DNA of 64,000 nt, from NCBI GenBank assembly GCA_019637875.1, contig JAHBUW010000015.1, positions 1-64,000 of the forward strand, in the 5' to 3' direction. This DNA comes from Pseudobdellovibrionaceae bacterium (GTDB lineage: Bacteria; Bdellovibrionota; Bdellovibrionia; Bdellovibrionales; Bdellovibrionaceae). Under the pieces are notes generated by a model, which worked only from the letters and a program-made list of their open reading frames with translations, was not told where the DNA came from and did not search any database. The translations under genes and the position numbers were made by a program. Each line of letters opens with the position of its first letter. The first letter of the stretch is position 1. Below, piece after piece: positions 38,926 to 42,456 of this stretch.

Positions 38926-40452
38926 ATGAGACGTTCCCTTTTTGGTGGATGGTGTCTGATCTTCGGGTCGCTTCTTTTGGCGGGGTGTTCGACCCTGAAG
39001 CAGAACGCCGCCGAACTTCTGGAAAAGAAAGAATACGGCGACGCGCTGGCGATCTACGAGCGCGTGCTCGCCGACTCTCCTCATGATGCCGAAGCCCTGT
39101 CGGGCCGCAATCAGTCGCGCTTGGGGCTGATTCAAAAAGAACTCATCGAAGTCCGGTTTCTGCGCCTGAGCGGCCAGCAATCCCAGGGGAACGAAACGCT
39201 ACTGCGTATTTTAAATCGGGTGAAAGACTGGAGCCTTTATCCGGAAGGCCCGGTCGCGTTCACGCAGTTCGAAGAGATGAGCTTCGCGTCGCGCGCGGTG
39301 GAAAAGGACGTGGTCGAGGCGCTCGCCCGACGCCGTCCGTTCCGCGCCGCCGCCGATCTACAGAAGTGGGCGGCGCTCTTTCCCGCCGAGCGCGGAACGC
39401 AGCTCGCGCAGCTGAAAGATCGCACCAAAAATCTGGGCATCGAGCAGTGCGCGAGCTGGCGGGATCAAGCCCCTGGCGAACCTTTCTTCGCGCGTTTTCT
39501 TTGGCGCAGTTGCGGGCTGTGGGGACAACCCGAGATGTCGCTGCCCCCCGCGCCCGAGCTGTTCGCGTGGCTTGAACCGCGGCTGCGTTGGTTCGACGCG
39601 CGTCCGGATCCCGCATTGGAAATCCAGCTGCGCGAAAAACTTCAGACCGCGTTTCGCGAAAGTCCCTGGTTCGACGCGAATGCCGGCAACGTCGCGCTCG
39701 CGCAGGTCGAGCCGCGCTACCGCTTCCGGGAAACCCGAACTCCCGTCGAACTCGTGCATGCTTACCTGGTACAGGTTCCCTACGATTCATCCGAGGTCGT
39801 GGAGCTCAGTCGGTGGGTTCCCGACGACCGGACCGAGAGCGTGCGCGATTCTTCGGGACAATACAAAACCGAGGTCGTTCGCGGCAGTCGGCAGGTTCAC
39901 TACACCGAGATGCGCACGGTCACCCGGATGCGCGATGAGGTCCGCTCGATCCCGTACGACGCTTTGAAAATCGAGTTGGAAGGAAATCTGGATTTCGATT
40001 TGCGCTTCGACAGCGCGCTTTTCGACGATGCGAAGAAAGTCTACTCTGCGCGTGAGGATGAAACCCTGATCCAGCATGGAAACGATAGCCCCGACGTCCG
40101 TTTGAAACCGCAAAATCCGCGCGTTCCTTCGTCGGGCGAGGTCTTCGGGGATTTGGCGGGACGGCTGACGAAAGAGTTCGGCGCGGAGCTCGGGTCTTTG
40201 TGGCGCCGCAAGTTTTGTCGCGCGCCGAAAGGGACGAAGTGGTCGGCCGTGGCCGAGAACGTCCAGAAGTGTCTTTACGGAGCGGGTGGGGAAACGCCGG
40301 ACTACGCCGAGCAGTGGCTCAATCGGGAACTCGGCGTCACCTCGGTCGAGCTGAAAGCGCTGACCCAAGGGCTGCCGAGCGCTCCGGCGGCGAAGCCGCT
40401 TAAACTCCGGAATCTTTCAAGCGCTTCAGAAACTCGAGATCCCGGTCCATAA
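38926..40452 (+). CDS. Lipoprotein with TPR-like N-terminus, unknown
   Basis: 508 residues. The lipobox SLLLAGC lipidates C21. Residues 25-80 form a TPR-like helix pair (KEYGDALAIYERVL). A beta-rich part follows at about 270-340 with VPYDSSEVVELSRWV. The C-terminal part has two cysteines (KFCRAP, QKCLYG). The 3' end overlaps the convergent zinc/histone gene by 53 bp. Confidence 0.75.
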   Translation: MRRSLFGGWCLIFGSLLLAGCSTLKQNAAELLEKKEYGDALAIYERVLADSPHDAEALSGRNQSRLGLIQKELIEVRFLRLSGQQSQGNETLLRILNRVKDWSLYPEGPVAFTQFEEMSFASRAVEKDVVEALARRRPFRAAADLQKWAALFPAERGTQLAQLKDRTKNLGIEQCASWRDQAPGEPFFARFLWRSCGLWGQPEMSLPPAPELFAWLEPRLRWFDARPDPALEIQLREKLQTAFRESPWFDANAGNVALAQVEPRYRFRETRTPVELVHAYLVQVPYDSSEVVELSRWVPDDRTESVRDSSGQYKTEVVRGSRQVHYTEMRTVTRMRDEVRSIPYDALKIELEGNLDFDLRFDSALFDDAKKVYSAREDETLIQHGNDSPDVRLKPQNPRVPSSGEVFGDLAGRLTKEFGAELGSLWRRKFCRAPKGTKWSAVAENVQKCLYGAGGETPDYAEQWLNRELGVTSVELKALTQGLPSAPAAKPLKLRNLSSASETRDPGP

Positions 40453-40924
40453 CGGTCTTGCGTCCGTCGGCCCGCGCGTTGTCGATCGCGCGGTCGGCGA
40501 TCATTCGTAAATGATCCGACAGCACTTCCATCACCGACGCCGACGTATTCATGTCGGCGCGCGCTTGGATGTACTCTTTCATTCTTGAGGCGATCACCAA
40601 AACTTCGCGCGGTATCGCGGCCGCACTGGCGGGGGCGGACGCCGCGGTCGACCCGCCGGGACGCACGATCAGGCGCGCGGGGGCACGTTCGCTTGCGCCC
40701 TCGGCCGTCGCCGAAGCGGGCGAGGTTTTTTCGATGGCGCCGGCATCGCGGTGACGGGCACCGGGAAGATGCGTTTCGAAACATTGCATGCGGCAGAACA
40801 CATAGCCCGTGCGGTTGCCTCCGCAGGTACTGACGCTACAGACGTAGTAGGGGGCTTTGAAGCCGATCGGTTTTTTGCAGACGCTGCACTTCTTCCAGTG
40901 ATCCAAACTGATGTCTTCGCTCAT
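40400..40924 (-). CDS. Zinc-finger protein with C-terminal histone fold
   Basis: 174 residues. Cysteines C13, C16, C29, C34, C44 and C48 with H52 form a zinc module (CSVC, YVCSVSTC, FCRMQC). A disordered Ala/Pro/Ser linker (60-103) leads to a histone fold at about 104-170: IPREVLVIASRMKEYIQ (helix 1), SVMEVLSDHLRMIADRAIDN (helix 2), then GRKTVMDRDLEFLKRL. The last segment matches the loop-2/helix-3 RKTV-x-x-D signature of archaeal histones and H4. Bdellovibrio has histones used as chromatin proteins, and zinc-linked bacterial histones have been predicted. DNA binding is therefore likely; the zinc part may bind DNA or a partner. Confidence 0.8.
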   Translation of the reverse strand: MSEDISLDHWKKCSVCKKPIGFKAPYYVCSVSTCGGNRTGYVFCRMQCFETHLPGARHRDAGAIEKTSPASATAEGASERAPARLIVRPGGSTAASAPASAAAIPREVLVIASRMKEYIQARADMNTSASVMEVLSDHLRMIADRAIDNARADGRKTVMDRDLEFLKRLKDSGV

Positions 40925-41124
40925 GCCTCGATGCTGACACGAAGCGGGCGGTCGAGGTAGGGCAATGCTGCGCGTCCGGCCCTTTCTGTCTGCCCGAAAT
41001 TGTCACTTGGACCGTCTTTCACAGGCTTTTCTCAATGGGGCCGTGCGCGGATCAATTGGCGGGGTCGCCACGCGACGGGTCCGGTTCGACGGTTGCACCG
41101 CTTGAAGATCAGGTGAGGTGCGAG

Positions 41125-42456
41125 ATGGGTTTTCGATTCGGAACATTGTTCTGTCTCGTTTTGGGATTGTGGTCCGAGGCTTCGGTCGCGGTGGAGTGTA
41201 AGGTCAAAGATCTGACCCGCAACTGTTCCGTCTTCGACGGAGACACGCGCGAGCGCATCCCGCTCGGTAACGGAACTTACGTCAATAACCCACGCGTGCG
41301 CCAGAGCGCGCAGAAACCCGCCGAGTTTCTAAGTGCCGGCGAGATCCGCGCCCGTGAGGCCCGCTTGCGCGAGCTCTTTCAGTACGCCCAGCGCCGCATG
41401 ATCGGCTACATCACGCGCGGTCGTCCGGCTTCGGCCTTAAACGAATCCGAGCGCAGCTTGATCGAGCGGATTCGCGGCACGAAAGTGGATATCGATACCG
41501 ACAGCGGTAGCATCGGCGGCAGCAACCAAGGCATGAGCGTGCTGCTCAATGGCGGTTTGCTCGCGGCGCCGGAGGGACTTGCCCTTGGCATCATCGCGCA
41601 CGAAATCGGCCACTCGGTGGATACTTGTTCTTCGCGCGCGCCCGTTTTAGAGCGGGGACGTCGCCATTCGCGTGAAGAGCTCATCGGTCAGCTCGTCGAG
41701 GAAAGACACTCGAAGAAAAGTAACTCGATCTACTACGAGTCGCGCTATCCCGGCGACAGCGAAACCGCGGTTCGTCTCTTTCACCGCCTGACCGACGAAG
41801 CGAGCTTGCCCTTCGTTTTGAACCGTACGTACTCGACCCATCCGGTCGCCCGTCAGCTGACGGACAGCTACGTCGCGCGCGGAAGTTTGCGGATCACGGC
41901 GCCCCCGGTCCCCCGCGAGGCGAACCCGGCCTTGCCCGTGTTGCAGTGTCTGGATCGTCAAGGGCCTCTGCGCGGATTGACCCGTCCCCTCGCGAACCCT
42001 CGTGATGAGGAAGCGCACGTCGCGGCCCAAGATCCGCAGCTCGCGTCGGACTGCATGAGCCAAAGCGGTGAAGTCATCGCCGACGTCTGGGGCGCGAAGG
42101 TGGTCGCCGATTTTGTCCGCGAAAACCCTCCGGCCAATGAAATGGAGAAAATCGGTCTGGCCATGCCCGCGGTCATGGAGGTCTGTGACGGTCGCTCACG
42201 CGCGCCGACCGCACCGACGACCCGGTCCCCCCGCGGGCGCGGGAGCCTGCAGGACTATCGGTCCGAGCACGCGAGTTTCACGGATCGTTTCGAGCAGATC
42301 TACTTCGACCAACCGGCGATCCAAGAGGCCCTCGGTTGCCGCAATCCGGACGGGATCCGGTGCTCCGGCCGATTCGCGGGCGGAGTCGCCGCTCCGCAGA
42401 CGGAGTCGACGGCGGCGCCGTCATCGCCTTCCTCCCGCAATGAGGGACGTGACTAA
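41125..42456 (+). CDS. Secreted zinc metalloprotease, M48-like
   Basis: 443 residues from ATG 41125 (GAGG upstream; the longer frame start at 41035 is upstream of the signal peptide). The signal FGTLFCLVLGLWSEASVA is followed by a catalytic helix IIAHEIGHSVDTC (HExxH, about residue 160). A later SGEVIADVWGAKVV gives the Glu-x-x-x-Asp third ligand as in M48-type gluzincins. Ten or more cysteines suggest disulphides. The C-terminal tail is Ser/Pro-rich. Confidence 0.8.
   Translation: MGFRFGTLFCLVLGLWSEASVAVECKVKDLTRNCSVFDGDTRERIPLGNGTYVNNPRVRQSAQKPAEFLSAGEIRAREARLRELFQYAQRRMIGYITRGRPASALNESERSLIERIRGTKVDIDTDSGSIGGSNQGMSVLLNGGLLAAPEGLALGIIAHEIGHSVDTCSSRAPVLERGRRHSREELIGQLVEERHSKKSNSIYYESRYPGDSETAVRLFHRLTDEASLPFVLNRTYSTHPVARQLTDSYVARGSLRITAPPVPREANPALPVLQCLDRQGPLRGLTRPLANPRDEEAHVAAQDPQLASDCMSQSGEVIADVWGAKVVADFVRENPPANEMEKIGLAMPAVMEVCDGRSRAPTAPTTRSPRGRGSLQDYRSEHASFTDRFEQIYFDQPAIQEALGCRNPDGIRCSGRFAGGVAAPQTESTAAPSSPSSRNEGRD

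What the first reader, a model, noticed from the sequence alone, without database searches (positions are those of the whole stretch)
40400..40924. Zinc module joined to a histone fold
The last 70 residues carry a histone-fold pattern ending in GRKTV-x-x-D, as in H4 and archaeal histones, behind six cysteines and a histidine and a disordered linker. Histones are rare in bacteria, and this two-domain form would be a candidate chromatin or regulatory protein in a predatory lineage.
Basis: partly seen in the sequence, partly recalled or inferred. Interest (0 to 1): 0.75.

Follow-up and report, generated by a model that had tools for sequence, protein, structure and literature searches.

The report
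A zinc-finger (ZZ) bacterial histone
The gene encodes a genuine bacterial histone with a zinc-binding module on its front end, a protein type already described in predatory bacteria as a 'ZZ histone'; the new part is that related genomes keep the zinc module even where the histone half is missing.

Summary
The 174-residue protein at 40400-40924 (-) has an N-terminal zinc-type module, a disordered linker and a C-terminal histone fold. By sequence the fold matches the solved Bdellovibrio histone HBb (E=4.5e-11, 7.1e-19 with a profile). By predicted structure it matches DNA-bound HBb (target TM-score 0.84, 46% identity). The module has six cysteines and two histidines as presumed ligands, not one; all eight are invariant in 30 relatives. 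The relative in the genome I take to be B. bacteriovorus HD100 (presumably Bd3044) is 67% identical. The same genome also carries a separate HBb-type histone.

New here, as far as the library shows: the zinc module occurs in 174 of 369 genomes of the phylum. In at least 22 of those genomes, from several families, it is a complete gene without the histone fold. Six genomes of one genus keep it with no detectable histone at all. The module therefore does not act only through histones, which argues against the 'histone-tail reader' idea. I read the protein as a low-abundance DNA-bound tether: the histone fold dimerises and grips DNA backbone, and the zinc module docks something else.

The parts
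40400..40924 (-). ZZ-histone gene, 174 aa, ATG start; its 3' end overlaps the convergent gene 38926-40452 (+) by 53 bases
   Evidence: purifying selection; relatives
40724..40924 (-). N-terminal zinc (ZZ-like) module, residues 1-67; presumed ligands C13 C16 C29 C34 C44 C48 H52 H58
   Evidence: all eight ligands invariant in 30 sequences; module found alone or fused in 174 of 369 phylum genomes; pLDDT about 90 over much of it in the full-length model
40613..40723 (-). Disordered linker, residues 68-104, variable in length and sequence, with a weakly conserved R-I/L-I/V patch at residues 84-87
   Evidence: pLDDT below 50 at residues 76-103; median identity of about 28% against 71% (module) and 60% (histone fold)
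40403..40612 (-). C-terminal alpha3-type histone fold, residues 105-174; helices 112-123, 129-152, 160-171; RD clamp R155/D162; loop-2 K156/T157
   Evidence: phmmer/hmmsearch to HBb; AlphaFold2 and Foldseek; alignment A3

Best explanation
The gene makes a ZZ histone of the bacterial alpha3 histone family. Shown by computation: the C-terminal 70 residues are a histone fold of the HBb kind, and the N-terminal 60 residues are a conserved cysteine/histidine module with ligands for two zinc ions in a cross-brace order. Inferred: two copies pair through the histone fold, and the pair holds DNA non-specifically through backbone contacts in the minor groove, bending it as HBb does. The zinc modules project on flexible linkers and dock something else (a non-histone protein or a nucleic acid). 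The protein is then a low-abundance, chromosome-bound tether or regulator rather than the bulk packaging histone; the separate HBb-type histone in the same genome fits that packaging role.
For: Fold. DNA contacts: of the ten HBb residues with most DNA contacts in simulation (PMC11317129: N22 R57 S9 T53 T8 S24 K10 K12 K52 K16), seven are identical here (N126 R161 S113 T157 S128 K116 K156), one is conservative (K10 to R114), and two differ (T8 to A112, K16 to Q120) by the alignment. RD clamp R51/D58 = R155/D162, and D49 = D153. Zinc module: eight invariant ligands, with spacing that matches the published ZZ histone D0LYE7 at seven of the eight listed positions with a constant offset of +7. Second histone: HBb-type gene at G000:C13:72373. 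Tree: the window lies in a 15-member clade made only of ZZ histones (SH-aLRT 99), apart from HBb-type histones. Low abundance: reported for the HD100 ZZ histone (PMC11390915). Zinc module acting beyond histones: at least 22 genomes have it as a complete gene without the histone fold, and six of these have no detectable histone.
Against: No DNA-binding, zinc-binding or oligomer data for this protein or, in the papers read here, for any ZZ histone. Two HBb DNA-contact residues differ. Net charge of the fold is only about +1, low for a packaging histone. Only a monomer was modelled; no homodimer prediction was possible. The partner of the zinc module is unknown, and gene neighbourhoods conserved beyond close relatives were not found.
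Confidence: 0.75

Rival explanations
1. Histone-tail or histone reader: the zinc module, like eukaryotic ZZ domains of p300, HERC2 and ZZZ3, binds other histones in the cell, and the histone fold places it on chromatin or makes mixed dimers with the HBb-type histone.
For: Structural likeness to eukaryotic ZZ domains that bind H3 tails (PMC11390915). The genome has a second histone, as do most of the Bdellovibrionales genomes surveyed that have a ZZ histone. Zinc module and histone occur both fused and as separate genes.
Against: Schwab et al. note that the H3-binding pocket is not conserved and that only half of ZZ-histone proteomes have a second histone. Six genomes of one genus (83-98% complete) keep the zinc module under constraint with no histone found by three queries. 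HBb-type histones here have no long tail.
Confidence: 0.15
2. Histone fold used only as a dimerisation module: a regulator whose specificity comes from the zinc module binding DNA or RNA, with no DNA binding by the histone fold itself.
For: Zinc module is more conserved than the histone fold (median 71% against 60%) and persists alone. It is mildly basic (+4), and weak Pfam echoes are to treble-clef-type fingers (zf-FLZ, zf-FCS, zf-HIT).
Against: The DNA-backbone contacts of HBb are mostly kept (N126, K156, T157, R161, S113, K116), and N126, S113, K116, R155, T157 and D162 are invariant across relatives. That is hard to explain if the fold only pairs.
Confidence: 0.15
3. Degenerate or chance ORF overlapping a convergent gene.
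For: The last 53 bases overlap the neighbouring gene, and no sigma-70-type promoter was found.
Against: Conserved protein in dozens of genomes, dN/dS well below 1, confident fold.
Confidence: 0.01

Closest known systems
ZZ histones (alpha3 histone family), e.g. D0LYE7 of Haliangium ochraceum and the ZZ histone of B. bacteriovorus HD100 (presumably Bd3044); Schwab et al. 2024, PMC11390915
   Same: Same order of parts; same cysteine/histidine ligand pattern for a C4 and a C2H2 site (constant offset of 7 from D0LYE7); bacterial-dimer-like histone fold; 67% identity to the copy in G036, whose size (3,782,950 bp) I take, from my own knowledge, to be strain HD100.
   Different: Predicted third helix spans 12 residues (160-171) because of the tail EFLKRLK, longer than the 3-4 residues given for alpha3 histones; shared with its own subclade. 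Reported position C53 of D0LYE7 corresponds to C55 by the offset here, perhaps a numbering slip in the paper.
HBb (Bd0055), bacterial dimer histone, PDB 8CMP, 8FVX, 9EZZ, 9F0E
   Same: Histone fold 46% identical, target TM-score 0.82-0.87; RD clamp, KT loop and most DNA-contact residues shared.
   Different: HBb is the fold alone, abundant and very likely essential. The window protein adds a zinc module and linker. HBb-type histones form a separate group in the tree, and the window genome has its own HBb-type gene.
Eukaryotic ZZ domains (p300, HERC2, ZZZ3)
   Same: Order of zinc ligands (cross-brace, C4 plus C2H2) as described in PMC11390915.
   Different: No Pfam ZZ hit at any threshold used and no PDB sequence relative. 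The likeness rests on the published structural comparison, not on a test made here.
Archaeal nucleosomal histones (HMfA, HMfB)
   Same: Histone fold and RKTxxxxD motif; weak profile match (HMfB E=0.006).
   Different: Much weaker match than to HBb (target TM-score 0.71 against 0.84); tetramer-forming residues are reported absent in HBb.

Membership tests
ZZ histone (alpha3 family) | N-terminal module with C4 and C2H2 zinc-binding sites | tested here: met
   C13 C16 C29 C34 C44 C48 H52 H58, invariant in 30 sequences; pattern matches D0LYE7
ZZ histone (alpha3 family) | C-terminal bacterial-dimer-like histone fold | tested here: met
   HBb best match by sequence (4.5e-11), by profile (7.1e-19) and by fold
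ZZ histone (alpha3 family) | RKTxxxxD / RD clamp and KT loop | tested here: met
   R155 K156 T157 ... D162; R, T and D invariant
ZZ histone (alpha3 family) | Truncated third helix (3-4 residues) | tested here: inconclusive
   AlphaFold2 predicts helix 160-171; many relatives end right after D162, so the extra turns are a subclade feature
ZZ histone (alpha3 family) | Groups with other ZZ histones in a tree | tested here: met
   15-member all-ZZ clade, SH-aLRT 99; few columns, so deeper forks are unresolved
ZZ histone (alpha3 family) | Actually binds zinc and DNA, forms a dimer | not testable with these tools
   Needs purified protein; only monomer prediction available
Bacterial dimer histone (HBb class) | Single histone fold with no added domain | tested here: not met
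   Zinc module and linker present; separate HBb-type gene elsewhere in the genome
Eukaryotic-type ZZ domain (Pfam ZZ) | Sequence match to the ZZ profile | tested here: not met
   No hit; nearest weak hits are other small zinc fingers below cut-off
Archaeal/eukaryotic nucleosomal histone | Tetramer-forming residues and DNA wrapping | not tested
   Only fold similarity was measured

The most novel reading that the evidence does not exclude
The zinc module, not the histone fold, is the conserved core of this family. It is a widespread single-copy bacterial protein module with its own partner, and the histone fold is an optional DNA anchor that has been lost, split off or re-attached several times in Bdellovibrionota and related groups.
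Probability: 0.45. Interest if true: 0.55.

Novelty: new member of a known kind. Interest (0 to 1): 0.35.

Why it matters
ZZ histones are, in the papers found here, an uncharacterised class of bacterial histone; no function is reported. The survey gives a concrete handle: natural proteins consisting of the zinc module alone, with and without histones in the same cell, make it possible to test what the module binds apart from the histone fold. They also count against the idea that it reads histone tails. The window protein itself is an ordinary member of the class.

Tried and rejected
Chance or degenerate ORF: rejected by conservation and dN/dS. A new domain combination: rejected, since the class is published. 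Mobile element or phage gene: no match in plasmid or phage collections. Operon partner: neighbours are conserved only within close groups (FlgD-type gene upstream in one genus, a membrane pyrophosphatase-like gene downstream in another group), so no general partner emerged. Naming the zinc module by sequence: no significant Pfam or PDB match. A separate AlphaFold model of the module alone was of low confidence (pLDDT 59) and was not used for fold search. Whole-genome download was not available. Tree test of repeated fusion or fission: too few columns to decide.

Full report
What is there. The minus-strand ORF 40400-40924 encodes 174 residues. Its 3' end overlaps the convergent gene 38926-40452 by 53 bases. 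The protein has three parts: a cysteine/histidine module (residues 1-67), a low-complexity linker (68-104) and a C-terminal domain (105-174).

The C-terminal domain is a histone fold. phmmer against the PDB finds HBb of Bdellovibrio bacteriovorus at E=4.5e-11 and the Leptospira and archaeal HTkC histones more weakly. A profile of 26 relatives gives 7.1e-19 to HBb and reaches HMfB. All 17 sequences in the histone-fold alignment echo Pfam CBFD_NFYB_HMF at E<=1, although the window protein itself is below the curated cut-off. AlphaFold2 with 26 relatives gives helices at 112-123, 129-152 and 160-171 with pLDDT about 90 or more over most of the fold, and a disordered stretch at 76-103. Foldseek's best PDB matches are HBb chains, free and DNA-bound, target TM-score 0.82-0.87.

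DNA contacts. Hu et al. 2024 (PMC11317129) list ten residues of HBb with most DNA contacts. With an offset of 104 taken from the alignment, seven are identical in the window protein, one is Lys to Arg, and two differ. The R51/D58 clamp and D49 are kept. Dimer-interface L31 is kept as L135; the other listed interface residues (V11, I35, L38, I59) are replaced by hydrophobic ones. A DNA-bending dimer is therefore the expected behaviour of the fold, but this is inference.

The zinc module. Their spacing agrees with the published ZZ histone D0LYE7 (PMC11390915) with a constant offset of 7, except for one printed position (C53 where the offset predicts C55). The module is the best conserved part: median identity to the window 71%, histone fold 60%, linker 28%. 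No Pfam family or PDB sequence matches it significantly.

What it is. Schwab et al. 2024 describe exactly this arrangement as 'ZZ histones', one of five categories of alpha3 histones, and report that the HD100 copy is expressed at a low level. Hocher et al. 2023 report Bd3044 as a longer, less conserved second histone present in 37% of Bdellovibrionota genomes (PMC10627809). G036, whose length of 3,782,950 bases I recognise as that of HD100 (own knowledge), has a 67% identical copy and an HBb gene at 49.4 kb. I take the former to be Bd3044. The window genome likewise has a separate HBb-type gene (G000:C13:72373). In a tree of histone folds the window sits in an all-ZZ clade of 15 (SH-aLRT 99), apart from HBb-type histones (few columns, deep forks unresolved). 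One review says deletion of Bd3044 is lethal (PMC11318664); the primary paper as read here reports deletion attempts for bd0055 only, so essentiality of the ZZ histone is not established.

Distribution. In 60 relatives, 26 have a ZZ histone and two more have the zinc module alone, while an HBb-type histone is found in nearly all. With the zinc module as query, 44 of 107 genomes of the class and 174 of 369 of the phylum have it, almost always as one copy. No match was found in plasmids or phages. A relative also occurs in Myxococcota (L005).

What is new. I read 22 genes in which the module is complete, with all ligands in place, but the reading frame stops before any histone fold. Two forms occur: about 69-75 residues (G012, G044, G115 and nine genomes of two genera of family f14), and 105-122 residues with a linker that ends in a basic, hydrophobic stretch such as VILRR (ten genomes of families f20, f25 and f26). 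No histone fold lies in the surrounding few kilobases of the 20 loci fetched. Several of these families contain both fused and unfused forms, so the change has probably happened more than once. Sixteen of the 22 genomes have a separate histone gene. Six, all of one genus and 83-98% complete, show none with a ZZ/HBb-type profile, an FtF-type profile or Pfam PF00808; PF00808 is a weak detector here, finding the window's own histones only below cut-off. The short genes are under purifying selection where this can be measured (dN/dS about 0.27 and 0.06 for two pairs). No paper in the library was found to mention such proteins, but most subscription journals are not held.

How it probably works. 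Shown: fold, ligands, conservation, co-occurrence. Inferred: dimerisation, DNA binding and zinc binding. The persistence of the zinc module without the histone fold, and in one genus apparently without any histone, says that the module has a job of its own. I therefore favour a tether model, in which the histone fold brings the zinc module, and whatever it holds, to the chromosome. The module as a reader of other histones is less likely (0.15), and the fold as a mere dimeriser is about equally so (0.15).

Verdict. As an item it is a new member of a known kind, of moderate interest because the class has no known function and the survey offers a way to separate its two halves.

Noticed in passing
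L136 (G240:C14:354300-355300), minus strand, about 280-692: A 134-residue ORF with two tandem alpha3-type histone folds, each with its own first helix and RKTVM motif: a histone doublet that matches HBb and the Leptospira histone by sequence rather than DUF1931 pseudodimers. Seen in one genome only.
   Followed up: partly
L116-L124, L137-L142 (families f25, f26): Free histones in these families resemble the histone half of ZZ histones more than HBb; the two f22 ZZ histones (L110, L114) carry a histone half very like these free ones, which hints at fusion or fission. The tree cannot decide.
   Followed up: partly
L086-L095, C-termini: Zinc-module proteins without a histone fold end in a conserved hydrophobic-basic stretch (VILRR, PILRR, VIIRKK); ZZ histones have a similar RRIIV/RRIVA patch in the linker. 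A possible short docking motif.
   Followed up: partly
L063, L022, L023, L028, L031, L033 (genus g6): In six genomes of one genus the ZZ-histone gene lies 12-52 bases downstream of a gene that looks like flagellar hook-capping FlgD, on the same strand; the name is from my reading of the sequence, not a family search.
   Followed up: no
window 41035-42456 (+): Divergent neighbour: a 473-residue probably secreted protein with an HEIGH motif and no Pfam match; a candidate unclassified metallopeptidase.
   Followed up: no
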